The notes under the pieces were generated by a model. It saw nothing but the letters and a program-made list of their open reading frames with translations. It ran no database searches and was not told where the DNA came from. Positions 701 through 20,031 of a stretch of 27,616 nt of DNA are shown in pieces (positions within the stretch are counted from its first letter, which is position 1; each line of letters begins with the position of its first letter). The position numbers and the translations under genes are program-made. Source of the DNA: Leucogyrophana mollusca (taxonomy: Eukaryota > Basidiomycota > Agaricomycetes > Boletales); NCBI GenBank assembly GCA_021014945.1, contig MU266641.1:1-27616 (forward strand). Reading direction: 5' to 3'.

Positions 701-751
701 TGTTTCATTGTAGGGAGTTTTTCATTGTGCTAGAAAATGGGAGTTGTGAAT

Positions 752-892: not shown

Positions 893-1324
893 TCACATGT
901 CTGACGCCGTGTCTTTAATGCAAAGTCCACTTTCAGATGTAAGAATCAAGACTTTTTGCAGCAAAGAATCAACATACCAGGACGGTAGAATTAAAGACGA
1001 AACTCTAGAAGGAAAGCCAGAGATCGGCACTGGGCAGTGCCCGACGACGCTCTTTCCGCAAGTACTACGCTTTGCCCTAATAGCATGCCCAAGGGCCTCT
1101 GTTATTTTACCTAGGGTTTCTCAAAGCTTTCTATTAGAGAGACCGCCCTCCGCTGTGCTCGAAGATGAATGCGCTCTGCGAAACCTATGCGCGCCGGCAG
1201 TTTGTAAATTGGCGTTGGCGAATAAAGTGCAAAATGACCACATACTCTGCCGCCGGTGCGGTCGTTGTGCAGGCGTGGTGGCCGGGATAATGAGATAATA
1301 AGAAGGCTGCTGCAAGGGAGAGGC

Positions 1325-2640
1325 TGCGCATGACCTTGGGGGATGAATCGATGACGATGGGGTGGACGTGAACCTGCGTGGACGCCAAAGATATCATCAC
1401 GTGGTAGTTGGGGTGCCTAGCGCTCATAGGCGGGAGGAGTCTGCTTGGAAAGTGCTCGATCGGGGCCATGGTGGCTGCGATATCACATTGGGGTCGGGTA
1501 CACTGACCAGTCCTCATTCAACAGATGGTTATCCTGTTGCTCCAGTCCGTCGCAGACCCACCGCAGTAAGCACCCCCGCTGCTTCTATCAATACAGGTCC
1601 TGACCCGTTGTTTGTTTTCTGACACCTCGCCGCGATTGACCCATAGATCCGAATACACAGTACCCCATCTCATAGTCCCCACCACCATCATTGACACCTC
1701 GCCTCTCCCCGACATCGGGCGCGGCGTCGCCACGAACATCACCGCCTAACTCCTTCGCCGGTGTCACACAGGTAGGAGATGTCTGGGGTCACTGCCAACT
1801 GGGCGACAATGCGCTGCTTGGAAAGCGGTCTATCAGGGTCATGGCGGGTGGAAGCGGCGTGGTTTGACTGCCATAGCGCTCTATGGACATAGCTCTTTCA
1901 GTGGTCTCGTTGGAATTGTCCCCTTGTCAACGGGTTCCCTGTCCATGGAATCTCAGTCCATGTGGGATTGTTTCACCCGCTCTGCTCGCTGCAGATATTA
2001 ATATCTGGCGTTGACCGTGCTGATGGCGTCCTGGTGCAACCCAGTCTTCTCATGTTCCTTTCCACCACTACCTCCAACGATACCCATTACCTAATGCCAG
2101 TCACGACGTCCATGGACGCCCCCATTGATGGCCACGACTACTTCAGAGTATTTACTATTTACCTGCCCCGCCGTTTGGATATTCACCGTCCAGTCTTGAC
2201 TATATTTATCGGTCAGGCTTTCGCTGAGTCTTGCCACATCTTCTAGCCTTGTTATCGTCATTCCTTCGACTCCCTCAACTTGGGTGTTGTCTGCGACAAA
2301 CCACCCCCGAGGAAAGGGCGCTCTGCGGCAAGGACTCTCGTCCCAGAACGCACTTGTATCCGTACTCCATCTGGGCCTGTTCGTCGTAGCCTTCCTGCCT
2401 CGACCTCCACGACCGTGAGGGACGTGATGCGGTGATCACGAACACGATCGAGCCATATACGCGACCCACGTCAAGTACTGGCAGTGGTAGCGTCGTGGTA
2501 TATCCTAACGCATCTCTGGCATCATTCGACTTAGACTCTACGCGACCTACGTCCACCGCCACCCACGTCAAGCCGACCCGCACCGAGCGCCTTCCTGTGG
2601 CTGTAGCGAATCGAGCGACCTCTTGTGTCTAATCCCAGAC
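1325..2640 (+). pseudogene. Decayed fragments of the cassette's EHTPLYW-family gene (copy A)
   Basis: Several short segments match copy D read on its minus strand. These are 1325-1520 (against 25830-25600), 1690-1860 (LPDIG-type segment then the NALLGK block), 1860-1990 and 2100-2290 (hydrophobic ...SSLVIVIPSTL... region of copy D). The order is kept but frames are interrupted everywhere, so this is a relic and not a gene. The short plus-strand frame 1962-2246 is one surviving piece. The homology is at DNA level; the protein identity comes from the better copies B, C and D. Confidence 0.5.
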
Positions 2641-2676
2641 AAGTCGCACGTTCCGAAAGGAGTGTTTCACACCTTC

Positions 2677-2781
2677 GACGCTAGGAGGGGGCTTGAACTT
2701 TGAATGCTAGCGGGAGCCTTTAACTTTGGGCGCTAGCAAGAGCCATTAACTCAGGACGCTAGTGCGAACCATGAACCTCGA
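2677..2781 (+). repeat. 26-bp minisatellite, about 4 units
   Basis: Four units of about 26 bp each begin with a variant of GACGCTAG followed by G-rich sequence and TTAACTT or TGAACYT. The same array occurs inverted at 24446-24550, so it predates the duplication that made the two arms. Confidence 0.75.
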
Positions 2782-3002
2782 ACTCAAGCCCTGAACTCCG
2801 AGCACGTAGCGCATCTGTCCCGATCTCTGGGCCTCGAGAACGTGCTGTTGCCGCTGCTGGGATTTCTCAGACCTGTGCGTCGGCGTTGTGTGGGGAGAAG
2901 GAAAGTCGGGTTCTGGTGCTCAACCTTCGTCTGGGGAGTCTTTTACTGCGAACTCTCAGGCCTCGGTGTCGATCCCGCGCTCGATCTCTCCTGTTAACCC
3001 CC

Positions 3003-3650
3003 CTGGCGCGCATAGATCGGAAGGTGTTGGCAAAGGTCGATAGATGGTTGGTTATTTGTTAGCCCGAACCATTCAATCAGTTGACCGTTCTCAGTTCAGC
3101 GATTGAGTTGCTACTTCGAGCGCTCCATCCGCACCTGCCAACAGTGAACAACGTCGTTGACGCACCCCCCGGAGCGTCGGTGTTAATCCCCCAAACATTG
3201 TCTTATGTCCTGGTAGACAAGATACAGTCGCATTTGGGGACATGCCAATCCAAGTTGTGCGGTTGTGCTGCAACAAAACGGGGTCCGGAGGTCCCCAGTT
3301 CACGGGTGGCAGAGGTACGGCCCACCGCAGAGTTGAATCAGGTCGAGCAAGATCCGCTCAGAGCGGCCCAAAGGAGAGATGCCCGAGCAGCTCTGCATAT
3401 GAGTGCCGTGGCTTCCTATGCTGGCCACCGCAGGGATGACGTGTGGTATTCGTCGTCCAGTGGCCATCTAGGTCGGCAGAACTTAGGTGACTTTCACTGG
3501 GCGCTTACCTTCTTGGACCATCACCATGCAACGCAGGGCGACATAGTTACAGATGTGGTTGTCGTGCTCTCCCAAGTCCGTGATATTTCCCTCTGGGAAA
3601 ACAATTGAAAGGCTTAAAATCCCGGAAATGGTCCACAAAATGGGGGGAAA
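3003..3650 (+). pseudogene. Truncated fragment of a second DUF6535 gene
   Basis: The segment aligns directly with 22170-22880 of the DUF6535 gene. It contains the end of one exon (GCGCATAGATC), a GTTGGT-type intron ending TTCTCAG at 3094, and the following exon from 3095 (SSAIELLLRALHPHLPTVNN). Shared protein blocks include SKLCGCAA, GHLGRQ, DFLDHH-like FLDHHH and DISLW. The copy begins in mid-gene at about 3003, lacks the membrane domain, and loses roughly 90 nt near 3603 relative to the larger copy, which produces a stop at 3606-3608. It is a broken duplicate. It is useful because it keeps CGA where the larger copy has TGA. Confidence 0.8.
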
Positions 3651-3690
3651 TCAAAATCGGAATATACTGTACTCTCTCCTGCTTCAGAGC

Positions 3691-4845
3691 TTATTTCAGA
3701 GCTGCTGTCAATGCTATCAGGTTCCGGGTGCTGTTTGGACGTGGTGTCCTCTCTTGATGATCCTGCTTGCAGTCGGATTTCAGCTTTGTTCGATAGCTAC
3801 AACATGTAATGCACTTGCCACCATCGGTCGTCTCAAATTCATTAGCGCGTTCAATAGCTTGCGAGAAAAGCAGCACCTCAGCTCGTGCACGGTACATTCT
3901 TGTACGCAAGACGCGCGACTCCAACTCAGGAGAACGTGCCTCGGGAAGCGCATCTAGCGAGTCGCGGGGTGTCGGCATTAGCTCCTCCCGGCAGGCTAAT
4001 TCCACTCCCCGTGCGTCATCGTACGCTTGCCGAGCCTTTCGGTCGACCCAACCGCTGACCAGTACAGAGGGGCAATCGGGAACCTGTTCGACAATCAGAA
4101 TGGTTGTCGAGGTGCAGGTTAGTGCACCTACCGTGAATTGCTGTAGGGCGCTGGGAACACCTGAACTTACGGATGCAATGAACAATGACTTGTGGTGCTG
4201 AGGGTCTGCGGTCAAATCGGGGTCCTCGTCAAAGCTCTGGTGCTCATCAAAAGGGTCGTCCGCGAACTCAGATGATACTGATGCCAGCCACCTAGTACAT
4301 TTATCCTGTATCATCGTGGGTGGGTGAAAAGAGGCATGGGGTTTGCTGGAGATCGTTTCAGATATTGGAGAGGTTCTGCTTCTGGGCTGGTGATGAGCTG
4401 AGTTGTTGGAGGGTGAAAATGTCAACCTGGGCAAGTCTAAGCGAACGAAACAGACTCACAGTCTAGCAGCTCTTGCAGGGTTCCGATGGCTTGGGTGCAC
4501 AGCGATACTTCAATCTGCGCTCTGTATCTCTTCTTTTCCATAAGACACAACTCGGCTCTTCGAAGTGTTTTGCTGTCATAAGCTAGTTGTGGCGTTTGTA
4601 GAAAATATTCTTCCCGGGTTTCGAGATTGCGAGCAATGAGTAGTTCCCATAGGTCAACAGAGAAGACGCGGCCTTCCAACAAGTACAGCAATAATTCGTA
4701 TTCGGTTTGAAGCTGCGACAAAAGCATCAGACAAAAAGTAAAACAAAGAGGAATCACATACGCTGGGAATTCGACACTGGCATTGAATCCAGAACTTCAT
4801 CACATCGAGCCCTGTGCGCGATAGGGCAATCGCACCTCTCTCCAT
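3691..4845 (-). CDS. Hypothetical protein with an internally duplicated helical module
   Basis: Three exons fit without conflict: 4762-4845, 4460-4712 and 3691-4397. The introns are 49 and 62 nt (donors GTATGT and GTGAGT; acceptors CGCAG and CTCAG) and phases agree, giving 347 aa from an ATG at 4843-4845. The second exon ends with a charged helical stretch (RRAELCLMEKKRYRAQIEV then SLCTQAIG). The last exon holds a second version (RTRMYRARAEVLLFSQAIE). R-x-RA-x-x-EV-x-L-x-x-QAI is shared, so the protein carries two copies of one module of about 60 residues joined by a Ser/Asp-rich linker. An 87-nt stretch at 4084-4170 has splice-like ends and is in phase, so it may be an optional intron. The family is not recognised. 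It is one of the few intact-looking host genes here. Confidence 0.6.
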
Positions 4846-4929
4846 AGCGGGTTTGCGTTGATGTGCGACAGTTAGCAGGCACAAAGCGGGTGGAGAGTTG
4901 GTGCATCATGTGGAGCTAGTCGATGTCAC

Positions 4930-6632
4930 TTATTACATAATGAAGTAAACAGATATTGATATTTCCGAATTCCTACGATATGGCTTATTCCTCGATCGAG
5001 CCCCCCTACACTGAGGACACACTCGCTGATCGAGGACAAGATACCCTCCCCCCCCCCCTTTAGCAGTGACAACACTGAAAACTCTGGCGCCCCTAAACGA
5101 TGTCCCCGCCCCCACCTTACGCACGTCACGCCCGCCTCGGTCCAGGTCTCGGGGTTGGGGGGCTGTTTGCGGGTAGAAACACGGGTTCAGCATTTGGCGT
5201 GGAACGTGATAACGGTCGGTTCCATTTGGCGGAAGCGTGGGTCAGCGGTGGGTGTAAGACAGGGAGGGGTGAATATGAGTCAGTGCGTTTAGTCCATGAG
5301 GTAGCCTGAGCACGACGACACGCGCACTGGTACGCACCGATATCACCCCTCTTCTCCGTCCCCCTTCCCGGCCTTGTACGCGAGCATACTTTCCCAGGGT
5401 GAGGGGGACTATGATCCCGCCTGCCGACAGGGTGGCGAGGGACGCGTTCGACGTCGCAGTTCATTTGACCTGGACCTGCGCCCTGTTGAGTTGGTCCTAG
5501 AGCTGTGTATGCTAGACCTCGAACTGCATTAGCTAGTCCTATATCTGCATTCGCTGTATTTAGAGCTGCAGAAGAACACGGAGGAGCGATAGGAACCTCA
5601 GCGACGAGCTGCACATCGACGTACGTCGGCGGACTGTGCTTCAGGGGCCCGAGCGCGACGCGCCACGTTTCTGCCGTTGTCGAGGGCAGATATAAGCCGG
5701 CGGACCCCAACCTATTTCAAAACCGGTTCGCAACCACCTTTCATTTTTTCCGGGGCATCTCGAGGGCTGTCAACATCCACAGACCCCTGCGCGCGATGTC
5801 ACTGACACCCACGCGCCCTGCGATGCGCATCCGCCGCTAGCACAGCGCGATATCGATGAGGGCGACGAACGCGCCGACGTTGTGCACGCGGTGGCGTGGG
5901 GTGCGCAAGGAGTGCGTCTGTCGCTGTGGGCGTGTACACGGTGTCTATTAGTGTGTGCGTGAAAGGGGAGATGTGAGTCAACGGGAGGATTCGCGTGGAA
6001 CGGCGCCTACCGCCCATACAGTGCGGCGGATAGCACCTGGTTCGACGCCACGAGGCACGCGTGCTGGAGGTTCGAAATAGTCAGGGGCGTGAGGGGCGTG
6101 GTGTGGTGGAGGATTGCAGGGAGGAGGTCCGTGCGGTGCGATGGGGTGGCTTGGGGTGTGTGGGTTTGGCTTGTGTGGCAAGGTGTCAGGTGTGGCTCCA
6201 AGACGATGGTCCAGTAGAGCGCGGTGTGCTCGGCGATGGAGGCCTCCTGGAGGAGTGCGGAGAGAAACGGATGCATGTCAGAGATGGAGTGAATCGCTTT
6301 CACCTGCCACGACCCCGATAAATCACCTCCAAAGCAGCGCCTCGTCCCGCCCGGTGAACGGCGATCGTCCCAGCTACGTGATGTCGGTAGAGGGGTTAGG
6401 CGGTGAGGGCTTCGAGGTGGCGTTGTGCCCGACGTCGGGGAGGGTGGCGAGAGCTTTGGGGTCGTGTTCGGATCCATGGGTCGATCATGGCGAGATATTA
6501 GAACACTAGCAATAAAACACCCATTCACTTTCGAGCACACCGGAGGGAAGTGTCTCTGATAGAGAACTCTGAGGCTTGGTAAAATGTTAACGATGATCGC
6601 TCTTGGCGTGGTACTATCATTGTATCAAGGGC
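4930..6632 (-). pseudogene. EHTPLYW-family gene, decayed copy B
   Basis: Read on the minus strand, the 5' part (6540 to 5980) contains a segment with LLQEASIAEHTALYW and then ...PLTPLTISNLQHACL..., which I recall from a widespread Agaricomycete protein family of unknown function. The 3' part includes LGPLKHSPPTYVDVQL near 5640-5590. These pieces lie in different frames with stops between them, so the gene is broken. DNA alignment to copies C (18100-19545) and D (25560-26480) is clear over 5870-6540 (for example GGTGTGCTCGG-GATGGA near 6225). Its 5' flank is cut by the transposon at 6640 and resumes at 15816. The 5050-5062 C-run and a 21-bp minisatellite lie in its 3' part. Confidence 0.6.
5465..5569 (-). 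repeat. 21-bp minisatellite, five units
   Basis: Five 21-nt units in tandem (105 bp). On the minus strand they read GCAGCTCTAAATACAGCGAA-type units and translate to seven-residue repeats such as AALNTAN, ADIGLAN, AVRGLAY, TALGPTQ. Keeping the frame across all units suggests expansion while the host sequence was still coding. Confidence 0.7.
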
Positions 6633-6638
6633 AAAGTG
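6633..6638 (+). repeat. Putative target-site duplication, left
   Basis: AAAGTG immediately before the left terminal repeat (counted as 28 bp from 6639), pairing with GAAGTG at 15817-15822. Confidence 0.5.
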
Positions 6639-6639
6639 T

Positions 6640-6666
6640 ATGGCAACAGATTGTGAGGAGGTTCAA
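6640..6666 (+). repeat. Left terminal inverted repeat
   Basis: Starts ATGGCAACAGATTGTGAGGA and ends GTTCAA. It is identical over 27 nt to the reverse complement of 15789-15815; inward of this the two ends diverge at once. Confidence 0.9.
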
Positions 6667-6789
6667 ATTTCCTTTTGTGGGTGTTTTGTTTGGTTGTGCC
6701 GGGGAAGCCGGCTGTATAGCCACAGCTTGAACCCCCGACACCCATGATTGGAATGTAGTCGACGAGCAAGATGGTCCTGATCACAGGCA

Positions 6790-6966
6790 GGGATAAATAT
6801 GTAAGGCAATCCAACACTGCTAGTATACAATATGAGTGAATATGAATGTCAGCACCACATCTTTTTGCAACTTTCCTGTGTGCGGAATTTCGGACTGCCT
6901 AAGTACAAGTTTGGACTGTAGTGAACAGGAGATGCTGTCCCGCACAGTAGGGATTAATATGTAAGG
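6790..6966 (+). repeat. GGGATAAATATGTAAGG motif, left pair (160-bp spacing)
   Basis: Copies at 6790-6806 (GGGATAAATATGTAAGG) and 6950-6966 (GGGATTAATATGTAAGG) start exactly 160 bp apart. The same motif appears in the opposite orientation at 12623-12638 and 12946-12961, with a variant at 12782-12798. Sequence between the copies is barely conserved, so the spacing itself may be the conserved property. Confidence 0.8.
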
Positions 6967-7153
6967 TATAGCAAGAGTGGATTACAGTTTATGAGACATC
7001 TCTATGAACATTGGAGTTCAAACTTGGCAACTCTCGCTCATATTTTGTCCTCAGCTGTAGACTCAGAGAAAGTCCTCAGACCACCAGTATGCAAATCAAG
7101 ACGAGTCACACCACGTTCACTGAGTGCAAGTACAACAGTAATACGGTGACAAT

Positions 7154-7305
7154 GTGATGGTTGAACATCCTGTGTATGTAGGGAATGAATCTAATGCGAT
7201 GGTGAGCATCAAGTACTAGTGAGTGAAGTGGTGATGGTGCGATGGTTGAGCATCCTGGGTATGTAAGGAGTGAATTTAATGTGACGGTTGAGCATCAAGT
7301 ACCAG
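7154..7305 (+). repeat. Tandem duplication of about 85 bp
   Basis: Two units start at 7154 and 7239. Each runs GATGGTTGARCATCCTG, GTATGTARGG, GTGAAT or ATGAAT, TAATG and GAGCATCAAGTAC. The GTATGTARGG core resembles part of the GGGATAAATATGTAAGG motif nearby. It lies in the presumed 3' flank of the kinase gene. Confidence 0.75.
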
Positions 7306-7378
7306 CAAGGAGGGCGTGAATGGAGATTGAACTGAAAGAATGAAAATATTCAAGATGAAAACGCTTACGCCCTCCGGG

Positions 7379-10209
7379 TCAGGTGTTCAAGTGGGAAGTC
7401 TTCGAGAAAGACATATCCTTGGAGCCCTGAGAGAGTAGATCCTGTGCGGACAGTGAGGAAACAAAAAGTGGTCCCTCATGTGCAGAAACGTCCACCCCAA
7501 CTTCATACTTGGCATAGTCTTGAGGGACACGGAAGAACTCGCAGAATTTGTTGCATTCATGTTCCTTCTCGAAGTTCTCGAACGCCTCAGGAATATTGCC
7601 AGATGTGAAGACTGGTCCAAGTTCGCTAGCAGGCCACTTGCTTAGTGACCGAGTCGCCAGGTGGGGGGGGGGGGCTTACCGCTTAGTAACTATCTGTGGG
7701 TCAGTCAAGAGTGTTTTACCGCCTACACAATGGAAGAGTAGTGAGTAATAAACGAAGCGCACACCGCAATGAAGTACCGCCCAGCTCACCCTGGTAATCA
7801 CTGACAAACACGCACTTCTTGGTCTTGAAGTACTGCACATGCTGAGTAAAAGCAAGGAACTCGGCGCGATGATTATCCTCGTCATTGAAGAATAAAAAAA
7901 GCTTGGCACTGTCGTTGTTGATGTACTTCTTGAAAGGACCTTCAACCTCTGGACGTATCTCCTCTTCCAATAGGAAGACCCTAGCCTCCTTATTCGTCTT
8001 TCCTTGCTCTATCGCCAACGCCATTTCCACGAAGCGAAACTTGGGGATTTCAAAAGGTGGATCTCCAAGTCCCAATGTTTCCGACTGCTGCCTCATGAAT
8101 CCGTATGAAACTCCAAGAAGTGCTGATCCCCAGACACGGTTGTTGCCCTCCATGGAAAGATTCTTGACCAGCGTAGGTCCATCATCTACCATGATCGTTG
8201 GAGCAACTGGCTGACCATTGTTGCCAGGGGAGTTCGGGATGGTGTAGAATGTTTGCTTTGCACAAACTCGCCGGTCTAGATCATCGAAGACTGGGGGCGT
8301 TGCCAGACCAAACATAGCAAACTTAGAGGCACCAGCCTTGCGCCTACGGACACTGGTATCAAGCTGGATATTGGCGACAAAAGAATTGTTGTAATCGAAT
8401 TCAAGGCCACGTGCTGGTCGAGCTGTCAGCTCCTCAAGCGTACGGGGTATCACGGGATGAATCAGCATCTGGTAAGCCTTGATATCAACTGTACGATGGC
8501 TCTGTCAGATCGCATATTTGAACATACAGTATCAAAATAACGCACAAATAGGACGAGCATGTTGGAAGGAGGATGATCGCTGGATGCGCAGAGCATTGTC
8601 CAAACGTTGTTGCTCTGGAGAGATCACTTCAGGTTGTAACTGGAAGCGTTTAGGCGGGGGTGTGGTGGGTCGGGCAGAATCCATAATTGACTGTAAATTC
8701 AAACGGTAGATATAATCAGCATAGGTGTTGTATGATTGTCGGATATGACATACCTCTGACGAGCGTTTGCGTTCTACAATCATACTGGTAGGTGGTACCA
8801 GTGCGCTACCAGCAGTACTAGTGGACGATTTGGATGTACTGGTGGTCCTTTTCTTTCCTGTCGCACGGCTGCCCTTCGCAGCTTTTGATGGAGGCTTGAC
8901 AGGATAATTGCCCTCTAAAATCTCAGACGCAGGTTCAAGACCAGAGGAGGAAAGCTAAAGTGTGAATAAGTATGCCACGACATGGTATGATAGAAGGAAC
9001 AAAAAAACCGTACCCCACTGCTGGCCATTTCTCTGGCCTCTTCTTCATTCAGCGCATCTTCATACACATCAGCTGGGACTTGAAGAATCATCTTGATCTG
9101 CCCGGGCTTGAAGGTCATCGCACCATTCTTGCCTGGCTTATGGAAGTGTCTCCAGATGATACGGTCGTCCAGAGCATGACTCTTAGGTTCCTCAATTTTT
9201 GTCCAGTCCTTGAGCCGTAAGACAAGTTGGTTGGCAACGAGGGGATAAGCAAAGTCCTTCTGCCATGCCGCCTGCACAGCGTGGAAAAGCAGGGACTTCA
9301 GTTCATGGTATCTGATATCGACAGCAACATCCCCAATGGTTTCAAACTAGCAAGAAATTCAGTAAAATTAGGTTGAGTTCCCATGGTACTGATTACTCAC
9401 TCCGAGGAGGCGTCTTTTGTCACTCCGCTCTGGCATATGCACCAACTGGACGCCCACAGAGACCACCTTGGCAAGTTCTTTCGCATATGCTTGACTGGCA
9501 TATTTTGCACGCTCAAATTGATAATGCTGATGGTTTGCTGAATATCCAGACTTCCCAGCAATAGGAATTGAGCTGGTGACTTTCGGGTGAGGCACAGGAG
9601 GAGGGCCCATGGTACCAATAGCACCAGCGCCTGGTACATTGATCACGGGTCTCGAAGGAGCAATGAAACCCCTGTTGAGGAGCTGGAGTGCAGCTGCGAT
9701 TGCTTCAGGTGTGTGGCCCTCCAATTTCAGGGCTGGTTGCATCAGGGACCGGGGTGCCTCCTGAGCTGCCGCTGATGAACCCTGACCAGGGCCTACCGGG
9801 CGAACAGAAAAAGTGAGGTCTTCACCAGTTGTGAGTGAAGGGTCACATTGATGTAAAGCTGCCACTGACCCCCTCTCTGTGCCTTTGCAACCCGCTGATG
9901 AACATCGACTGCGTGTTGAGAATGGGTTTGCTGGGCGTCCTGCCCCTTGTTCGGGACGGCTTAAAAATTGAATCAGTGATAAGTTTAACAGTCACTATTG
10001 AAGGTAAATTCACCAATTCGCCTTGTGGTTGGTTTTACTTCATAATATTGAACGCATTCTGTACAGAGACGTCGAGCAGGGACATTCCCATCATTGGAAT
10101 GGACCGTGACCAGCTCACTAGCAGGTAAGGTCTTTCCGCATTTTGGGCGTTCGCACACACCAGATTGAGGGAGGTCTGAGAAGTCTGCTGCAAGAGCCTG
10201 AGGGGTCAT
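7379..10209 (-). CDS. Alpha-type protein kinase with N-terminal Cys4 motif
   Basis: An atypical (alpha/MHCK-type) Ser/Thr kinase, about 800 aa. Exons fitted: 10014-10209, about 9401-9939 (this acceptor is uncertain by a few codons; 9930 also keeps frame), 9014-9346, 8754-8954, 8546-8690, 7790-8488, 7680-7722, 7379-7625. Near residues 19-52 a C-x4-C...C-x2-C set (CERPKC ... LCTEC) suggests a zinc-binding domain. The middle is Ser/Thr/Lys-rich linker. The kinase domain fills the C-terminal third: RVCAKQTF with the candidate ATP-site lysine near 549, then SDYQG and LLTDPQI near 702-715, matching the family's D-x-QG and LTDP motifs, and HECNKFC near 741-747, the family's C-terminal zinc-binding motif. 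All key residues seem present, so it may be active. The 43-nt exon 7 encodes exactly the LTDPQI segment. Exon 7's downstream intron contains a G12/C12 run. It is the element's most downstream gene. Confidence 0.88.
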
Positions 10210-10372
10210 AACTGCCGAGGGTTAAATGTGGTGATTACGCTGGTACAACAGACAGCAGAGCTGAGGGTGTTGTGAGCACAACAGAAACTAGGGAGCACAG
10301 CTTACTGTCATGACTGTACAGTTCTACGGTGATGGAACAGGATGATTTGGGAGGAACATGGCATTGTGATGG
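10210..10372. promoter_or_regulatory. Spacer between integrase stop and kinase start
   Basis: Only 163 bp separate the integrase stop codon (10373-10375) from the kinase ATG (10207-10209). This must hold the integrase 3' end and the kinase promoter. I see no clear TATA box or polyadenylation signal. Confidence 0.4.
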
Positions 10373-12209
10373 TTACTTGTCTTCCTCCTCATCGGAGAAA
10401 TCACGATTAGCATATAGACGGCGATGACTATTGCTACCCTCTTCCTCATCCCCCTCACCATCCCCCTCGGCCGAGGGAGGGTTTTCCAACCCTCCCATAT
10501 AGAGATATCCTAAGTCACCAATACTGTCCTCTCCGAAGCGCAGATTTTTCAAGCCATCTAAAAGGGCAACATCAGGCAGTGTCTCCTCATCCCCCTCTCG
10601 TTCATAAGTCTTCATAAATTCGTCTAGAGCAAAGGCAGAGCTGTGTGATTCAAAGGCGTTGAGAAGAGTTGTGTATATGTCCCAGAATGAGTCCGAGGAG
10701 ACGGCTGGTGCACCCATCGCACCATAAAGCAGCTGTGCCTGTGTCTCAAACTCGGGGGGAACGAGCTGAAATATAGGATGCTCAGCAGGGGCCCATTTAT
10801 CCTCCATCTCGTCAAGCAGCTCGTCTGGGACATGTATCTGAGAGAAAATATTCAGCTGTTACTTCTTTTTAGAGCGCTGAATTCATACTACCTTGAAGTC
10901 TAGAGCCTTGTATCGGTGGGGTTGTGTGCGTATTATATCAGGAATGCCTTGTGGAAGGACTTTGTTGCGATCAGAGCGACGGGGTGTGGTATTCCAGCGA
11001 TGAACCCAGTGATCGATCTCTTTCTGCATCCATGGAATAGCAAGCCAAAGAAAGATGAGCCTGGAAAGAGAAATCGGTTGTGAGCGATGAGCAGAACACT
11101 CAAACTGATAATACCTATGGAGTGGATCATCTGGAACATATAATCCTTCGTTCACACCGTGGTCCAGAATGTCTTCAAAGCCTGGTGTGAAGTGGCGGCG
11201 GATTTGGGACCAGCCACACTCTGCCTTGATGTTCATGTTCTTTCGCATCCATCGATGCTGCAGTGTGTCGGTGAGTGAAGGGTCAAGGCGATGGCGGATT
11301 AGAGTGTGAAGATTGGCAACACTGTTGTTTTCTGTCCCTGGGTCGCTTTGGGTAACTAGTGGAACACCTGAGGCGACATCATAAGAAGATAAAAGGTGAT
11401 ATACGATGCCATGCAGACACACCACCAAGTTTCCTCACCGCTTCAAGGTAATACCTGGCAATCAGCCTGGGATTCCTGTTTGCCCTCCATATCTTGACCC
11501 AGGCAATAAATCCGCTGAAAGGATCCAGACCGAGATGTAGCCATAGGCCAAAACGCTTCCACTTGTCATGCTGATCCATGGTAACAATGTCCATGACTCC
11601 AGCAGCGAAGAACCTTTTGCGCTTGAAGCGCTTTGCCTTTCGGGCCTTGACACGCTCAGGCTCGTGTTTTTTCAAGAGGTTTGCTACCAACACTCTGATC
11701 GGAGTGGAATCAGCGTGTCAATTTGCATAGAATAAATTATAGTACAACTCACTCGGGCACTTTGACCTTGTAATCCTGTCGCAGTGTATGTACCATGGTC
11801 CGGGCTCCCATGTTTGGGTATCTCTTGCGTATTTCCTGATAAAGGGGAAAAACTGTTTCCTCTGTGTGTTTTTGCTTTCTGGTGCTATGCCAGCCCCAGG
11901 ATGTTCGCCACTCCCTGAACGTCCAGACACTGGAAGAAAGTGTTTTCCATTCAGTCAATCAGCCATGCAGCAAAGTCTGGACGGTGAATCAGAGAACAGC
12001 AATCTTACCTAAGTCCATACTTGTTCGTATCATAATGGTCAGTCAAGTGGTCGACGATTTTTTCATCCGTCATTCCCATATGCCAGTATTGTTCTGCATG
12101 TACCTTGATGGTCGCCTTGGGTGCTGCAGTCCAGATATATTTTAATAGCACATACTAAATAGGAGTAGGATCACTTACGGGTGGGTTTGTGCTGATTGGA
12201 CTGAGGCAT
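10373..12209 (-). CDS. DDE integrase-core (rve-like) protein, probable transposase
   Basis: Seven exons fit in phase: 12179-12209, 12009-12123, 11753-11929, 11423-11694, 11115-11367, 10892-11060 and 10373-10837, giving 493 aa. Residues about 30-107 look like a helix-turn-helix DNA-binding region (VWTFREWRTSWGWH, NMGARTMVHTLRQDYKV), followed by a basic stretch (KARKAKRFKRKRF). The catalytic core resembles eukaryotic integrase-core-domain proteins: VTMDQHDKWKRFGLWLHLGLD (D148), VTQSDPGTEN (D207) and NIKAECGWSQIRR (E248) supply a plausible DDE triad. The C-terminus is strongly acidic (EGDGEGDEEEG, SDEEEDK). The protein should act in the nucleus on the element's ends. Donors are consensus except GTGTGT after exon 4 and GTATTA after exon 5. 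It sits between the unknown gene and the kinase, same strand. Confidence 0.85.
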
Positions 12210-13151
12210 GATGGGGGATGGAAGCACAGTTGTCGATCGGCATTGAAATGGGTCAATCTGCCACATAGTTGCGGTGACATTTGGCCTAGTTCCGCTCCAG
12301 GTACATCTGCACTCCAAACATGTGAATGGTGACATACTAGATATCATAGCCTAACAGAGGGCAGATAATCCACCAAAGGCATTACACAGAGTCGCTTGCA
12401 TTCAGTTGAATTTATTATCCAAACCCCAAAGACAGCAATTTCAATGGGCTCGGATGACTTGGATGTCGTTGGACCATCCAGATTGAGCGTGAGAACTTTC
12501 CATAGGATGAGCAAGACACCAAAGAACGGCTTGTCTCCAACTCTACTACAGCAGGAGTTGATTAGACTTATGATAGGCTGAGAGATATGAGGTATATCTC
12601 ATCACCTATAGGTCAGTAGAATCTTACATATTTATCCCTGGAGCAGTGAGGTCGATAAGTCAACAGGAGCGGGTAGAACCCCTGACTGAGATGCTTCATC
12701 ACACTGCTGGCCCAGAGTTGCACGATTCATACTCACACATATAGCCCATATACTATTCTTTCATATGGATTGTTGGATATACCTTAGGTATTTATCCCAT
12801 TTACACTATGAGTAAATTTCTGTGCGCCTCACAATGCTGACAGCATGTGACGCTTGTGGTCTTCAAAGAGGACATGAAAGTCGTAAGTTTGCTTTGGATT
12901 TCTGATCGCATAGAACTTAGAAGTCATTTTCACTCTGGTGCAATGCTTACATATTTATCCCGGTGGGCTAAGATCTTTTAGAATGACCAGTTGGGCGTAT
13001 CCGTCAGATACGATATACTGGATGGGTGTACTACTGTGCAGTCAAAGTCTCTATTTATTTTAGGTATCTATCACAAAGGCTTATGGGGCTATGTAAACGA
13101 TGGTATTCATGTGGTAAGATACACAACAAATGCGCAAGGCCACAATTAAGC
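12210..13151. other. Non-coding 5' region of the integrase gene
   Basis: About 940 bp with no supported gene between two same-strand genes. It holds three copies of the ATATTTATCCC motif (next entry). A 61-codon plus-strand frame at 12396-12581 has no recognisable content. The region presumably includes the integrase promoter on its left and the 3' end of the upstream gene on its right. Confidence 0.5.
12623..12961 (-). repeat. GGGATAAATATGTAAG motif, right group (about 160-bp spacing)
   Basis: On the minus strand the motif occurs at 12946-12961 and 12623-12638 (both GGGATAAATATGTAAG, identical to the left copy at 6790) with a variant GGGATAAATACCTAAGG at 12782-12798. Starts are 159 and 164 bp apart, close to the 160 bp of the left pair, and orientation is opposite to the left pair. 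A further weak relative (GATAGATACCTAA) lies near 13061-13074. Confidence 0.8.
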
Positions 13152-15815
13152 TCAGAAGATAGGTAAAGAGTCAGGAAGCGCTGTGCTGCAACTACTAGAT
13201 CGGCGAGTTTGTCGCCCAGCATTCAGATGTAAGTGTGATGACCCCAGAACCAACTTACTATCGACCCCAAGGCGCCTCCGCTTTACACCATTGGCAGATG
13301 GTGAGTGGCCTAGGACATCGCAGGGCTTGTCATCCGAGATCTCATCCTCCAAATCCACGAACGACCGTTTCCGCCATCCTCCTCGACCATATTGCCCATT
13401 ACCTGTGGCATGTGATGCCCCCCTACGCTGCCGTCCATCTGTGATTCTGTCAATGCCTGCCAATTCCCGGTTGCGATAAGTTTCTGGTATGCATGGATCG
13501 TGCCTACACAAAGAGACCCTATAAGATAAAGAGGTTCAGTCACAGACATTACAAAAAGACAAGTCTAGGTGAGATACGTACAGAGGGTCTGCCTTCCCTG
13601 CATGCTGACGATGAATGAGCCGGGCAACCCCACAGTATTCGAGGGGGCCAACAGCAGCTCGGCGAGTGTGTGTGATTACGTGAAGGAAGGTGTGAGTAAG
13701 GCGAACATCTGGTGTTACACAGAATAAGGCCTTGTCTGTGGCACGGCGATTGGACCTTGTCAACCTGTTAGCGGAGAGGAGATGGCGAGGGGGAGTAACT
13801 CACTTGTTGCGCACACCGTGGACGAGACTGTCTGGGAAGTTGTGAGTGATCGTCCATAGCTGCTTTTGGTGATCACCGGAGTAGAGATATGGGGTGACAG
13901 CACGTTTCCGCATGTCCCTGGGCTCTAGAAACAGGGGATCGTAAAGGGAGACATTGATGAATGACTGTGAAGACGGGTACAACCCTATTTAGAAGGTGTT
14001 TATTGGAGATGAGTGTCCAGGAAGAATCAGCTGTCACTGCAACGCACCTGTCTGACGAAACAGTTGTGTCAAAGCGTCATCTTGTTGGGACACTGTACCA
14101 CCAAGCTGCCTCCACTTCTCCTCGCCGAAGATGAGGTGCCCAAGGTTCACCTCTTTCTCAAGGCCCAAGCGGATGTATGTAGGCTCAAATACATCGAAAA
14201 GTCCAATTGAACTGTTTCGGACTGCCGTATCATTGGTCTCCTCGAAGCTGGAGATAATCACCTTTCAAATGTGTCAGAATAAGTAAATGCCCATTATAAT
14301 AACTTACATTATAGGACTCGAGCAAGTCATACATGCGCTGGGGCATATGTGTTTGCTGCTTGGAAAACACTCGCAGCCAGTGCGAATACTTAGCACGCTG
14401 GTCCTTTGTAGCTGCAAGGATATATCCTTGCCAACAAGGGCGGAGGAGCTCACTAGAGTGTTAGATGTGAAACGTGAGCTTCGTCGGATCAGCGTCAGCA
14501 GGGTTGTTACTCACTCTAGGTGAAGATGCGAGTGACATGCGAACGCCCAGAATGCCTCACAAAATCGAGCAGCACGATCTGGGGTATCAAAGACTTCTGC
14601 TTCAGTCAAGAAGACAGAGAGCCCTATATGTATCTGAGTAAAAAGCGAAAGCATTAAGTAGAACACATATGAGGTACTCACCAGCCGAGAAGAATAATTC
14701 GACGATTGTGTATGAACCAATGCCACCAAAGCATAAGTGGCCATCTGTGCGAATCACGTTGACGGCAAGATTGGTGCGGACCGCTGTCTTACTTCGCTGG
14801 CGTTGAGAGATCCACGCCGCAACTGTCACGAGAAATTTCGGATAGTCCGAGTAGACGTCCACATGTTGAGCCGGCAGATCCGCACGTGTACGAGCCCAGT
14901 GAGGCTAGAGAAAGTTAATCAGTCGGAAAAGATGAGACAAGAGTGACATACTGTGTAGATATTATCGAGAGTATCAAATGCGAGGACGTACTCGCCAAAA
15001 TCCAAGGCAATCCCTACCTTGAATCCCCGTGACTGCAGTGGCCGAAATTTTCAGTTGTGGTGGTTTGGTAGTAGAAATGTCATGTACTCACCATCGAGTC
15101 CACTACTGCAATGCTATCGTCCCATTGGGAGCGTGTGTAAACTTGAGGAAGGGTGTGGGTATGAAGCTGCACCTAAGGGGGCGGTTGTGTGATACTTTCA
15201 ATCAGAACAACTTGGATAGTACGAGAAAGACGCTTACCTGGAGCCAGAGCTTTCCAAGGTTTAAAATGACATTGCGAGGCGAGGTGTGAACACCCTGCAA
15301 GTTAAGCAAGCTCAAAGGAGCAGGCTTCGACCGGTTACTCCATACCCCGGGAGGGTAAACCGGTTTTTGAGCGCGGTTGGTTCCACGTTTGATCTTCGTG
15401 GTGTGCGAGAGCCGATAAACGAGTCCATTTTTTACACGAGCGTCTTTGGAAGTATTACGCTCGTCTTCGGTTGCGTCTGCCCAGATGGCCTGCAGAGGGA
15501 GGCCGATTGCACCAGTTGAGATATCCTTGAACCAGCGTTCAATAGTTTTGAAGGCTGCGAGGCATTCGCGGTACTCGGGCATTGAGCAACTTCGATGGAC
15601 AATTATTTGAGGAACACCACTGGTCCCACGAAACGCGTCGACGTGTTCAACCAAATGCGAGACGCGTCGACGCGACGTGATTGAAAATTACTAAATTCTG
15701 ACTATGTATACTACTTGCGTCGGTATTCTGGGTCCTACCTACACGGCAGGGCCTGCCGACAGATTTGTTTGTAGCACCTTACTCCCTGTTGAACCTCCTC
15801 ACAATCTGTTGCCAT
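13152..15815 (-). CDS. Unrecognised transposon protein, about 640-680 aa
   Basis: Exons that fit in phase: 15238-15582 or longer, 15092-15172, 14952-15032, 14682-14904, 14515-14623, 14308-14452, 14048-14261, 13804-13984, 13582-13755, 13152-13518. The first ATG in the long 5' frame is at 15582 (SMPEYREC...), giving 639 aa. A longer model starts at an ATG formed by the first three bases of the right terminal repeat (15815), with exon 15739-15815 spliced to 15619, giving 677 aa. Recognisable stretches are KVGIALDFGEYVLAFDTLDN, DVYSDYPKFLVTVAAW, CFGGIGSYTIVELFF, YSHWLRVFSKQQTHMP and a basic/acidic tail (DLEDEISDDK, VKRRRLGVDS) that could be a nuclear signal. I find no kinase, DDE or tyrosine-recombinase motifs. 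A possible intron starts at GTAAGT near 13260 and would change the last residues. Co-orientation with the integrase suggests a transposition role; that is inference. Confidence 0.7.
15789..15815 (-). repeat. Right terminal inverted repeat
   Basis: The plus strand ends CTCACAATCTGTTGCCAT. Read on the minus strand it begins ATGGCAACAGATTGTGAGGA, identical to 6640-6666. The first three bases form an ATG opening a 25-codon frame into the element. Confidence 0.9.
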
Positions 15816-15816
15816 A

Positions 15817-15822
15817 GAAGTG
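15817..15822 (+). repeat. Putative target-site duplication, right
   Basis: GAAGTG immediately outside the right terminal repeat (counted as 28 bp to 15816), differing at one position from AAAGTG at 6633-6638. Confidence 0.5.
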
Positions 15823-15823
15823 T

Positions 15824-16320
15824 GTACTTACCACAAGAGCATCCTCGGGCAATGCCGAGCTTGCACTTTTCTTCTCGAGTGTCGTCTTGAGCTTTGCACT
15901 TCTGGTAAGTGGATTCTTCGCGGAATAAGGTCTTGATTCTTACCTTTTCTCGCCTTGAAGGATAGTCAACAAACACAGCGTCAGATGTGTGAATGTTGCC
16001 AGGCCGAAATTTTACCTTTCGACCTGCCCTGGCCAAGTTTCTACTATGAAGAGCCTGAACGACGATACCCTTGATCTATCGCCTCTTGCGATTCATCACT
16101 GAACCGAGGACAGGTGGATAATCCATTACATGGTTTTACAAACTGTGAACGGGTGCATTTTTTCGAAAATGACAAGGATCTTGTAATCCCTGGCAAAATC
16201 TTATAATGCAATACCCACCTGTCTCTAAATCGCTGATGCTTCATAACAGCCGAGTGGACGTTGCCGGACGCTAAGCCATACTATATCACGAGTTCCATTT
16301 CTACACCGATGCAGTGAGTC
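15824..16320 (+). pseudogene. Methionyl-tRNA synthetase first exon, decayed copy B
   Basis: This continues cassette copy B beyond the transposon. The 5' flank (CGGGCAATGCCGAGC near 15848) matches copies A, C and D. ATG at 15993-15995 opens MLPGRNFTFRPALAKFLL and stops at TGA 16047-16049. Homology to copy D resumes at about 16250 with AKPYYITSS, the PYYIT part of the strand before the HIGH motif, and ends at a damaged splice donor (CAG/TGAGTC near 16314). The gap between the two parts holds a short foreign insertion (16110-16222). The frame is broken, so no enzyme is made. Confidence 0.65.
16110..16222. mobile_element. Possible 113-bp MITE-like insertion
   Basis: The segment starts ACAGGTGGATAATCCATTAC and ends with sequence whose reverse complement is ACAGGTGGGTATTGCATTAT, an imperfect terminal inverted repeat of about 21 bp. 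It interrupts the synthetase fragment; copies A and D lack it. Cassette-like sequence seems to be repeated on both sides over about 25 bp (CTTGCGATTCATCACTGAAC against GATGCTTCATAACAGCCGAG), but no clean target-site duplication is visible. Confidence 0.45.
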
Positions 16321-17395
16321 TCTCCCAGACGCGTTTCGTATCCATACCACCATCTCTTGTCGCATTTCATCTCTCTTGTATACAGCCTCTCCGTTCTCAT
16401 CGTAAAACAACTGACCAGAAACCAAGTTCCTCACATAGGTCACTCTCTTGTAGCCCCTGGCCCATTAAGGCCTGTCGTCTTCCTCGCAGGCACAGTCGAG
16501 CACGGGCTCAAGATCCAGGAGGCGGGCTAGGGCCCGTACGACCTTCCAGCGTACGACGGAGGACACGCACCGCAAAACCGTTGAGCACGTCTGGGGAAGT
16601 ACCCTCTCCTGTCCCCCGATCCCCCCACAATCAGCCGAACAGAAGTGTATTCAGCAGGCTCTTCTACAGATCAATTCGACGGGATCTGGACGCCCGACAG
16701 CGATCACCTAACGTTCTGCAATGCACCGCAGGCACCTTAACAGCTCTCGTCCCAGTTGTGCCCTGCATGAAATACAATAAACGCGTCTCCGCGAGGTCCT
16801 GCACCCTCTCCAGGCGTAGTCCAGGCCAAGTACTAGCACGGGGGAGCATTCAGTCAGTCCGCCATTCGCCGATATGCACGAGTGATCGAGCTGTAAAGGA
16901 GACGCCCAGCCGAGCTCCACCGACTCTCTCAGCGTGCGCTCCCTCAAGCCGAACGTAGCGAGCGTTGTCGCGTCCTGGTTGTGCGTCCTTGCCTATCCCG
17001 TTCCCGAAATTCGGGAGGGGCGGTTTCGGAGCCTGTCTTGATGGCACCCAGTCAGATATGCACGAAATAAAAGGATGGGATAGCACGTAGTAAAATTGTA
17101 ATTATGTGTTCCATCTCAACTGAGCGGCCTCTCTCTAACCTTCCGATTCAAAGGCTGGATTGGTTCACGAGTATGCGTGTCTACGAGTTAAACTTAAGTC
17201 AGCCTAAGCGATCCAACCTCGTGGGACTCACAGACGAGGAGACGACTCTCTGGACTCATCACGATGCATACGGTCCGAAGTATAGTCTGTGCTTTAACAT
17301 TGGGCCACTCATGGATGATGAGTCGCGGCGGCGAGTAGAATTGGCGTTGGGTCGGCACATGGTTTGCTGGGGCTCGTGAAAACACAATACATATC
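16321..17395. other. Largely gene-free stretch with one weak ORF
   Basis: Up to about 16400 it still resembles the flank of copy D (CGCGTTTCGTATCCATACCA against 26976-26998). From 16440 to 17090 I see only GC-rich sequence with overlapping frames of low-complexity Arg/Ser/Pro composition and support no gene. 17104-17379 (+) encodes 91 codons (...DDESRRRVELALGRHMVCWGS) with balanced composition and could be a small gene or an exon, but it has no recognisable family and the minus strand is also open there. Confidence 0.35.
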
Positions 17396-17731
17396 CTACC
17401 CGATGATGGGAACCTCTCGCAGAAAATCAACTGGCATAAAGTCCACCCCGTGTCGTACGGGCACCTCGGGGAAGTTCACTCCCCAAACCTGAACGCGAGG
17501 GCCCGATGAGATACTCCGACAGAAGTAGATCGAACGAGATGCACGTACCTCCTTTGCTTGCTCAAGCATGCCAGGCAGGCCCCACAGCGTAACTTTGAAG
17601 TGGGGGAACATCCTCGCGAGCGGCATTGCAAAGGTGACACAGTCCAAGTAACGGCTCGTCTCGCCAAATGGGCACCGAGCACCTCGAATGCGTAATGCCA
17701 TCCCCGGCGTCCATGTCCACGCCACCGCCAT
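17396..17731 (-). pseudogene. Remnant of a spliced gene, last two exons
   Basis: On the minus strand 17549-17731 (...FGETSRYLDCVTFAMPLARM..., ending GMLEQAKE) joins in phase across a 60-nt intron (17489-17548; donor GTACGT, acceptor TTCAG) to 17396-17488 (VWGVNFPEVPVRHG...EVPIIG, stop). The clean splice phase argues for a former gene. Upstream no continuing exon is clear; another frame there (DGGGVDMDAGDGITHS) resembles the acidic DGVDVDSGDEITQL segment of copy D near 25780, so it may be a chimera or a frameshifted relic. The family is not recognised and it may be a short functional gene. Confidence 0.45.
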
Positions 17732-17825
17732 CCGCCGTGTCTATCACGAACACACTACTTAAAGAGGTCGAACAGAGAATCGATGTATAGTGAAATTGTA
17801 ATGAAAGGCTTGAGACATTAGCCCG

Positions 17826-18060
17826 GAACATCCTGTGAGCCTCGGAATTGTCGTTCGAATTGCGTGGTTCTGAGTTCTCGGAACCTCGGAAGGTCAGCCG
17901 GAACACTCGGAACGTCGTAAATTCTGTAGTTTGGAACAGGCCCGAATTCCCTGACCTTGAGCCCCGCATGCATGAGGGTGCTCCGCGTGGTGATCGAGGA
18001 CAAGAAGATGGCCGCGGTCGTCGTGGACTCACCAGTTATAGCTGCGTACTGTGACTGCAC
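17826..18060 (+). repeat. TTCCGA/TCGGAA-rich dispersed repeat, copy 2
   Basis: Inverted partner of 570-700 and, further in, of 330-490. It contains many CGGAAC/TCGGAA steps, then GAGCCCCGCATG and a segment reading GATCGAGGACAAGAAGATGG. It joins cassette copy C at about 18060-18100. Confidence 0.5.
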
Positions 18061-18099
18061 GTACCCCGACACCCCGCTCCTCCTTCCCCCCAACTAATA

Positions 18100-19545
18100 G
18101 TGGCAACGTTAAGAACTCTGGCACCACAATCAGCACCCCCGCCCACACCGCCCCCACCACGTCCTCCGCTCTCGCCCCCTCCCCCGTACATGCTCTCCTT
18201 TCGAGTGCACACCTGCGCCGTACTCAATCTCGCGAGTCATGCATAGTACAAGCGTGCGAAGGAAAAAATACTCGGGAACAAAGGGGCTTGAGCGTGCGGA
18301 GTGGAGGTAACAGAACTGGAAAGTGCCCGAAGACGTGTGAGGCGTCGTCGATAGGTACCCCAAGCCCCTCAACCCCACTCCCAACCCGAGTCACCAGTAC
18401 ATCCGCGGCCCCACACTCATACACGAAAACTTCACACTCCGGGCGGCACACCTCCAGCCAGCTCCTCCCGCCATACGAGTAGGTCCGCATAGATGCATGG
18501 GACGGCGGGCGGTGGGCTGCGTTGGTCTTGGACGCGATGGAGGGGTGGTTCGTGCTCCTGGCAGATTTAAGCCCTGGGCTCCGAAGAAGGGAGAGGCTAC
18601 TCGCTCGAGGAATGTCAACGTCTACAGCCGCCCGCTCGTGATGACATCGACGGCCGCGCGCCCGCCGATGCGGCAGGGCGCAATATCGACGAGCGGATGA
18701 GTGTGCCGACGTTGCGCACGCGGACAGAGTCTGTTGAGCTTGCTGTGGCCGTGTGCGTGGTGTGAGTTAGTGTGCACGTAAAAAGGAAGATGCAAGCCAA
18801 CGAGAGAGCTCACCTGTCTTGGCCCCTGCCTCGCCACCCATCCCGTGGAATGGCGCCCTCCGCCCGCGCAATGTGGCGTAGCAGAGGAGTACGGAGAGGA
18901 TGTCCGCGCGGTGTGATGGGATGGTTTGGGGAGTGTGGGGTGGTTGCGAGTGTGGCTTATGGACGGCGGCCTAGTACAGCGGGGTGTGCTCGGCGATGGA
19001 ACGCTCCCAGAGGAGTGTGGAGAGGGAGACGGATGTGCGCGAAGAGCACGCAGCGAGGGCGGATGCGGGGTCCTGCGTGGGACTATTCGAGCCCTGGGTG
19101 AGTGGACTAGCAGGTGCGGAGAAGTTATGGTGCGGAGAGATGGCGGGTTCGTAGATCGCAGCCAGCCGGAGGTGCGCGTCTGGTGAGAGCTCGGTGTGGT
19201 TGCAGGAGGACTTGATGTAGGTAAATGGACTTGATGTGTGTCGCGGATAAACTGACGGTGGTCGAGTTGAATCTGAATTGAATCATCCCAGAGATGCAGT
19301 GGATCATTAGGACTCACTACTTCCGCCCGCCGCGACCCCGACATATCACTTCCCGAGGAACGCCTTGTCCCGCCCAATGAACAGCAAACGCCCCAGCTAC
19401 GTGGCGCAGGCGGAGAGGTTTGGCGGTGATGTTTAGTGGCGGCGCTGTGCCCGATGTCGGGATGTTGGGCAGGGTAGCCAAAGCTTTGCGGTGGTATACG
19501 TGGCGAGATGTCAGAGACTGAGCAGTCAAACGCGCAATCACTTTC
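18100..19545 (-). pseudogene. EHTPLYW-family gene, decayed copy C
   Basis: DNA alignment to copies B and D is clear at 18700-18790 and 18950-19540. On the minus strand near 19033-18971 one frame reads SVSLSTLLWERSIAEHTPLY and stops at TAG (18971-18973), where copies B and D have tryptophan (TGG). Further upstream lie LPDIG-type and LWDDSIQIQLDHRQFIRDTH segments in other frames. A 340-codon minus frame at 18622-19644 crosses these pieces out of phase and is a composition artefact. The gene is non-functional. Confidence 0.6.
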
Positions 19546-19770
19546 TAGCACATCAGAGAGAAATCTCTCTGTACAGAACTCTGAGACACCCCAGGTAAAA
19601 TGGCGGACGCCTTTGGGCGGGGTAAATAAGGCAAAGCGTGGCACTTACAGAAAGAGCGTCCTCGGGCACTGCCGAGCTCGGACTTTCCTTCGACAGTTTC
19701 GTCATGAACTCTGCGGTCCGCCTGGAGGACTGGGACAAGACTGGCAGAGGACCCGACAACAAAACAATCA
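19546..19770 (+). promoter_or_regulatory. Copy C version of the divergent cassette promoter, upstream of the DUF6535 gene
   Basis: The segment (AGAACTCTGAGACACC near 19577, GGGCACTGCCGAGCTCGG near 19666) matches 26430-26700, which in copy D separates the EHTPLYW gene from the synthetase exon. Here homology ends at about 19725 and the DUF6535 gene follows instead of the synthetase. It also gives an uninterrupted version of the site hit by the transposon (GGCAAAGCGTGGCACTTAC near 19630). That it drives DUF6535 transcription is inference. Confidence 0.45.
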
Positions 19771-20031
19771 TTTGAAGTTTTCGTACCCTTGCGGATGGTC
19801 TTCGCGGTGATGACCAGAAAGGTTACGCGCGTGGTACTTACTTTATCGATCTCGCCGCTGATCTTTACGTTCATCAGCCTTGCTCCTTCCACCACTTATC
19901 GCCTGTGCTGCATGCCTCCTCGCAGACACCACCTGTCTTCCTTAGGCTTGCCTGCAGGATTCGGCCCCGGCGTCAGAGGCAGGGATATATAATGCATGCG
20001 TGCGAATGGAAGGGCCCCAACCTCTTACCCA

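What the first reader, a model, noticed from the sequence alone, without database searches (positions are those of the whole stretch)
6640..15815. A 9.2 kb DNA transposon carrying an alpha-kinase, an integrase-core protein and an unknown protein
Perfect 27-28 bp terminal inverted repeats enclose exactly three spliced genes on one strand. A eukaryotic alpha-type kinase inside a terminal-repeat element with a DDE integrase is, as far as I know, not a described transposon type. It could help explain why alpha-kinases are so numerous in some mushroom genomes. That they travel together is inferred from the repeats.
Basis: partly seen in the sequence, partly recalled or inferred. Interest (0 to 1): 0.88.

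Follow-up and report, generated by a model that had tools for sequence, protein, structure and literature searches.

The report
Mushroom transposon carrying a DNA glycosylase
A 9.2 kb jumping gene in a mushroom carries its own transposase, an unusual protein kinase, and an overlooked protein built like the enzymes that cut damaged or modified bases out of DNA, which might help it escape silencing by its host.

The parts
6633..6638 (.). left target-site duplication AAAGTG
   Evidence: AAAGCG in two diverged empty paralogous sites
6639..6666 (+). left terminal inverted repeat, TATGGCAACAG...
   Evidence: 28/28 with the right arm
6790..6805 (+). internal 16-bp motif GGGATAAATATGTAAG, copy 1 (copy 2 at 6950-6965, one mismatch)
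   Evidence: 5 copies in the window, 0.03 expected; no copy elsewhere in the held genome at up to 1 mismatch
7379..10209 (-). gene C, alpha-kinase, 807 aa, 8 exons
   Evidence: PF02816 61.1 bits, cut-off 21.3
10373..12209 (-). gene B, DDE integrase-core (rva_4) transposase, 493 aa, 7 exons
   Evidence: (PF24764 43.4 bits, cut-off 26)
12623..12961 (-). three further copies of the 16-bp motif (12623-12638, 12783-12798, 12946-12961) upstream of gene B, start-to-start spacing 160 and 163
13152..15582 (-). gene A, Fpg/Nei-fold DNA glycosylase homologue, 639 aa, 10 exons, start M-P-E-Y-R-E
15789..15816 (-). right terminal inverted repeat
15817..15822 (.). right target-site duplication GAAGTG (one mismatch to the left copy)

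Best explanation
It is an autonomous cut-and-paste DNA transposon of the IS3EU kind (about 0.85). Its integrase-core transposase is expected to bind the 28-bp ends, cut the element out and join it to target DNA with a 6-bp stagger; the duplication is shown, the chemistry is inferred from the DDE family. It carries two passengers that move with it: an alpha-kinase, and a protein with the Fpg/Nei DNA glycosylase fold and its N-terminal proline active site (fold about 0.95; an active glycosylase/AP lyase about 0.7). The most likely use of the glycosylase (about 0.35-0.40, inferred) is to excise bases derived from 5-methylcytosine in element DNA and start base-excision repair, erasing the CpG-methylation mark by which the host silences it. 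The substrate could be 5mC itself or the oxidised forms made by the TET enzymes that mushroom genomes and some of their transposons encode. That would parallel the TET gene that some fungal IS3EU elements carry. What the kinase phosphorylates is unknown; I guess at regulation of the transposase or of host silencing or repair proteins.
Against: No sequence profile reaches significance for Fpg/Nei: 0 of 48 members match an Fpg or H2TH family in Pfam at E<=10, no PDB chain matches the profile at E<=1, and hhalign to an enterobacterial Fpg alignment gives probability 0.9% (that alignment is very narrow, Neff 1.3). The Asn that Fpg has in its H2TH turn is Val in 39 of 48 and Ser in this copy; a loose H2TH-like pattern is found in 43 of all 87 homologues and the strict one in 18, some records being partial. 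The Fpg catalytic Lys may be Arg103, so chemistry may differ or be lost. No TET gene lies between transposase and kinase here. CpG depletion shows that the element was not fully protected. The exact terminal repeat is unique in the genome. The erasure role has no direct evidence.
Confidence: 0.72

Rival explanations
1. The glycosylase serves transposition or its repair: it processes abasic or flapped DNA at the excision or insertion gap, or protects single-stranded intermediates, and has nothing to do with methylation.
For: Fpg/Nei enzymes cut abasic sites by beta,delta-elimination (established knowledge). A related gene A copy (C324) sits between inverted arms (208 of 220 bases identical) with no transposase match found, and one Mycena homologue is annotated as one protein with a long unrelated part (P0201), so it may ride on different elements.
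Against: The second bounded element shows transposase and kinase but no gene A in the tblastn scans, so transposition may not need it; a very diverged gene A could have been missed.
Confidence: 0.2
2. The glycosylase counters mutation rather than silencing: it removes the T:G, U:G or 5hmU lesions left by deamination of methylated CpG, slowing RIP-like decay of the element.
For: The elements show the signature of such decay, CpG depletion with TpG/CpA excess.
Against: The decay has happened all the same, strongest at C324 (CpG o/e 0.22), which carries a gene A copy itself. Fpg/Nei enzymes are not known for T:G repair (recalled).
Confidence: 0.15
3. Gene A keeps the Fpg/Nei fold but is no longer an enzyme; it acts as a DNA-binding or DNA-bending cofactor.
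For: Asn of the H2TH turn is replaced, the catalytic Lys position is uncertain, large insertions, no profile-level similarity.
Against: M-P-E..E, an N-terminal active site of use only after Met removal, is among the best conserved parts of the family: 60 of all 87 listed homologues begin MPExxE as annotated, and genomic copies C194 and C324 begin MPEYRE and MPEYCE.
Confidence: 0.2
4. An ordinary chromosomal gene trio with accidental inverted repeats.
For: Exact repeat present only at this locus.
Against: 28/28 arms plus duplication plus empty paralogous sites; the second element; step in CpG content between element and flanks; a family with several loci in this and many other mushrooms.
Confidence: 0.03

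Closest known systems
TET-bearing IS3EU elements of rusts and one truffle (Kojima 2025, PMC12730594)
   Same: 6-bp duplication and TAYGG..CCRTA ends (rust families), transposase plus alpha-kinase, plus a third gene for an enzyme of DNA base modification
   Different: Third gene here is a glycosylase-fold protein, not a TET/JBP dioxygenase. It lies outside the transposase-kinase pair, all three genes share one strand, and only 163 bp separate transposase and kinase. Host is an Agaricomycete. TIR is 28 bp, the rust ones are longer than 30.
IS3EU/GingerRoot superfamily in general (PMC10045372, passages)
   Same: TA..TA ends, usually 6-bp duplication, integrase-type DDE transposase
   Different: Transposase phylogeny against Repbase families could not be run here
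Fpg/Nei DNA glycosylases (MutM, NEIL1, NEIL3, plant and fungal FPG)
   Same: Fold over 248 residues, start M-P-E..E, G[IV]GxY helix-two-turn-helix-like signature
   Different: Twice the length, large insertions, extra C-terminal region, mostly GIGV instead of GIGN, no profile-level similarity, carried by transposons. The host also has an ordinary H2TH gene elsewhere (C16; exon matches 32.5 bits, just under the cut-off of 34.7; MPELPEV start by my own splicing).
Kyakuja, Zisupton, Plavaka and other mushroom transposons with TET genes (PMC12730594)
   Same: Transposon-borne enzyme acting on modified cytosine (for theirs)
   Different: Unrelated transposases; dioxygenase rather than glycosylase

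Membership tests
IS3EU | 6-bp target-site duplication | tested here: met
   AAAGTG/GAAGTG, 5 of 6, here; CACATG 6 of 6 in the second element. For the second element an 8-bp reading (ACACATGT with ends AC..GT) cannot be excluded
IS3EU | TA..TA termini; in rusts TAYGG..CCRTA | tested here: met
   TATGG..CCATA here; TACGAATGG..CCATTCGTA in C18 (TA..TA met, TAYGG not)
IS3EU | TIRs longer than 30 bp (stated for the TET-bearing rust families, not for the superfamily) | tested here: not met
   28 bp here; over 100 bp in the C18 element
IS3EU | transposase clusters with IS3EU transposases | not testable with these tools
   Repbase not held; PF24764 match only
TET-bearing IS3EU subgroup | TET/JBP gene between oppositely oriented transposase and alpha-kinase | tested here: not met
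   163 bp between B and C, same strand. At C142 the two are in opposite orientation with the gene A remnant outside
alpha-kinase (PF02816) | curated domain score and catalytic residues | tested here: met
   61.1 bits against 21.3 for the window's protein. K529, D690, Q692, D700 (P0208 numbering) in 22 of 22 aligned homologues; the window's protein, not in that alignment, has the matching residues by eye. Model of the homologue P0208 (mean pLDDT 63) matches solved alpha-kinases, E 2.6e-10
Fpg/Nei DNA glycosylase | two-domain Fpg/Nei fold | tested here: met
Fpg/Nei DNA glycosylase | N-terminal Pro nucleophile and adjacent Glu (P2, E3) | tested here: met
   43 and 44 of 48 aligned members
Fpg/Nei DNA glycosylase | H2TH motif with G[IV]GN turn | tested here: inconclusive
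   GIG-x-Y..E.FF.AG signature present, but Asn replaced, by Val in 39 of 48 and Ser in this copy
Fpg/Nei DNA glycosylase | catalytic Lys and zinc or zincless finger | tested here: inconclusive
   Arg103 aligns near Fpg Lys57 only in a non-significant hhalign; model coordinates not inspected residue by residue
Fpg/Nei DNA glycosylase | significant sequence-profile similarity | tested here: inconclusive
   none at profile level; the comparison alignment was narrow
Fpg/Nei DNA glycosylase | base excision or AP-lyase activity | not testable with these tools
   needs biochemistry

The most novel reading that the evidence does not exclude
Mushroom IS3EU-type transposons encode the missing base-excision half of fungal active DNA demethylation: a proline-dependent, Fpg-fold glycosylase that excises 5-methylcytosine or its TET-oxidised forms, used by the element to erase host CpG methylation.
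Probability: 0.35. Interest if true: 0.9.

Novelty: new variant of a known kind. Interest (0 to 1): 0.72.

Why it matters
Mushroom genomes hold TET genes, some on transposons, and oxidised cytosines have been measured in two of them, but excision activity had not been discovered in fungi (PMC8889193, passage; it mentions one predicted thymine DNA glycosylase gene). A transposon-borne Fpg/Nei-fold protein with a conserved active site is a concrete, expressible candidate, and would show transposons recruiting a second step of demethylation beside TET. It also gives a first identity to a family of 'hypothetical proteins' of Agaricomycetes, and ties 3 of the 5 alpha-kinase loci found in this genome to transposase genes.

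Tried and rejected
Rejected: (1) 'undescribed transposon type because of the alpha-kinase': in print for IS3EU. (2) Gene A as TET/JBP: no Pfam match; the fold is Fpg/Nei. (3) An 8-bp duplication: gives 6 of 8 here against 5 of 6 for 6 bp (sequence).

The TAY..RTA scan found no pair at C142, C255, C518, C194 or C324, and a looser scan none at C255 and C142; some ends are off the contig. No repeat pair in 6.5 kb around the rva_4 locus C308 or in the short loci of three others. The profile route to Fpg failed, and a profile search of the transposase gave no useful solved structure. Alpha-kinase N-terminal half: low confidence, no identified domain beyond the kinase.

Literature for a transposon-encoded Fpg/Nei or other glycosylase: searches (15 listed of 211 papers; 3 of 3; 9 of 9): no such report in the titles and abstract openings shown. 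Kojima 2025 has one mention of glycosylase (thymine DNA glycosylase) and none of Fpg or NEIL in its main text. Iyer 2014 (PNAS) is not held and was not checked. Kinase plus transposon: 2 papers; 3; 0; 1; passages say nothing on transposons. IS3EU plus Agaricomycetes: (3 papers, only Kojima opened). GingerRoot: (listing). Supplements were not available.

Not supported: 'all alpha-kinases ride transposons'. Of 5 alpha-kinase loci found in this genome (C315, C18, C142, C255, C518), 3 have a transposase within about 5 kb; C255 and C518 lie about 0.6 and 0.7 kb from a contig end and have none upstream in the 14 kb and 10 kb read. Of 7 contigs with rva_4-like hits, 3 have a kinase match. These searches give lower bounds.

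Full report
1. The element. The window (a whole 27,616-base contig of Leucogyrophana mollusca, named by NCBI records) contains a 9,178-bp element at 6639-15816. Its ends are 28-bp perfect inverted repeats TATGGCAACAG... The bases outside are AAAGTG and GAAGTG, a 6-bp duplication with one difference. The flanks belong to a diverged repeat present several times in the window. When the flanks are joined without the element, copies at 19320-19714 (68.9%) and 806-1171 (reverse, 69.1%) align with gaps across the junction, and both read AAAGCG at the target site, so the left copy of the duplication looks nearer the ancestral state. A scan for such pairs finds one in the window and none in 5 of 5 mononucleotide shuffles. 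The exact repeat is found nowhere else in the held 32.3 Mb assembly, so the family is single copy there.

2. The genes. Hand splicing gives three open genes on the minus strand, in the order of transcription A (639 aa), B (493 aa), C (807 aa). B matches the integrase-core family PF24764 (rva_4, 43.4 bits, cut-off 26); C matches the alpha-kinase family PF02816 (61.1 bits, cut-off 21.3); A matches no Pfam family at E<=1. Among 24 aligned homologues of B (24 of the 120 listed), D196 is invariant and D137 and E237 are at least 90% conserved. Among 22 of the 31 homologues of C, the residues K529, D690, Q692 and D700 never vary; the window's own C is not in that alignment but has the matching residues by eye. 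The model of the homologue P0208 (mean pLDDT 63, kinase part higher) matches solved alpha-kinases.

3. Co-mobility. (a) The same genome holds a second element, C18:33474-38608 (5,135 bp). Of the first 120 terminal bases 116 are inverted-identical, the duplication CACATG is perfect, and it encloses a diverged B (E 9e-10) and an alpha-kinase (30.6 bits). Its repeat too occurs only there. I saw no gene A in it. (b) C142 carries the C-terminus of gene A (+), B (-) and C (+) within 7.3 kb; its left end is off the contig. The gene A piece is weak by tblastn (E 1.2e-6 and 1.9e-4 with two queries; none at 1e-5 with 39 homologues) and rests on its GPLDYCG motif and basic tail. (c) In Hygrophoropsis aurantiaca the three homologues have consecutive locus tags on one 17,662-base contig. 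A seventh (P0209, Tricholoma furcatifolium) is one 1,206-aa prediction with both domains. Two of the 31 share a contig with a homologue of A (H. aurantiaca, F. claudopus). B and A share a contig, besides the window's own, in H. aurantiaca, a second L. mollusca contig (27,970 bases, consecutive tags), Rhodofomes roseus and Mycena capillaripes. Several of these contigs are long, so a shared contig alone is weak for them; most of the 31 kinase homologues show no listed partner. (e) In this genome 3 of 5 alpha-kinase loci have a transposase within about 5 kb and 3 of 7 contigs with rva_4-like hits have a kinase.

5. How it works. Shown: bounded element, duplication, open genes, conserved active-site residues, repeated association. 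Inferred: the transposase cuts and joins with a 6-bp stagger. A 16-bp motif GGGATAAATATGTAAG occurs five times inside this element (0.03 expected in the window) and nowhere else in the genome at up to one mismatch. Its surroundings are not conserved; the spacings are 160, 160 and 163 bp, near the left end and upstream of the transposase gene, so it is a candidate binding site. Elements of this kind show CpG depletion with TpG/CpA excess compared with their flanks (0.68 against 0.97 and 0.97; 0.78 against 0.93 and 0.96; 0.60 against 0.96; 0.22 at C324), the footprint expected of past CpG methylation. Coding against non-coding composition is an uncontrolled confounder, and the host Fpg locus is at 0.88. 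Against that background a glycosylase passenger most plausibly acts on methylcytosine-derived bases. I put this at 35-40%, with transposition repair, anti-deamination repair and an inactive DNA-binding cofactor as rivals.

6. Known or new. TET-bearing IS3EU families of rusts and one truffle carry a transposase and an alpha-kinase gene in opposite orientations with the TET gene between (PMC12730594, section 4.1; truffle in the passage); ends TAYGG..CCRTA and 6-bp duplications for the rust families are in section 3.1.3 (passage). IS3EU in general has TA..TA ends and usually 6-bp duplications (PMC10045372, passages). So the kind is known. New here, as far as my searches go, are the Fpg/Nei-fold passenger, the same-strand arrangement, and an alpha-kinase IS3EU-type element in an Agaricomycete. 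Iyer 2014 was not available. PMC8889193 (passages) says that excision of oxidised cytosine had not been discovered in fungi, while naming one predicted thymine DNA glycosylase gene, which makes the Fpg-fold protein a testable candidate.

Noticed in passing
window 6790-6805, 6950-6965, 12623-12638, 12783-12798, 12946-12961: A 16-bp motif GGGATAAATATGTAAG repeated five times only inside the element, with spacings of 160, 160 and 163 bp, near one end and upstream of the transposase gene.
   Followed up: partly
G000 contig C18:33474-38608 (L037/L038): Second, different transposase plus alpha-kinase element with over 100 bp of inverted repeats and perfect 6-bp duplication CACATG.
   Followed up: yes
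G000 contig C324:19099-25177 (L044/L045): A gene A copy between inverted arms (208 of 220 bases identical), no integrase-core or kinase match found, CpG observed/expected only 0.22: the glycosylase gene may ride on another kind of transposon.
   Followed up: partly
P0201 (Mycena venus): Gene A homologue predicted as one protein with a long unrelated N-terminal part; the source calls it a MULE domain-containing protein, but no Pfam family matches at E<=0.1.
   Followed up: no
G000 contigs C298, C308, C53, C362: Stronger rva_4 matches than the window's own transposase, with no alpha-kinase match listed on those contigs.
   Followed up: partly
window 1-6600 and 15817-27616: Both flanks consist of several diverged direct and inverted copies of the same repeats, with one long unidentified ORF at 20624-22069.
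   Followed up: no
L. mollusca contig of 27,970 bases (P0104, P0124): Another transposase and gene A pair with consecutive tags (1050884/1050885) is in NCBI records, but the protein P0104 does not find its own locus in G000, so the held assembly seems incomplete.
   Followed up: no
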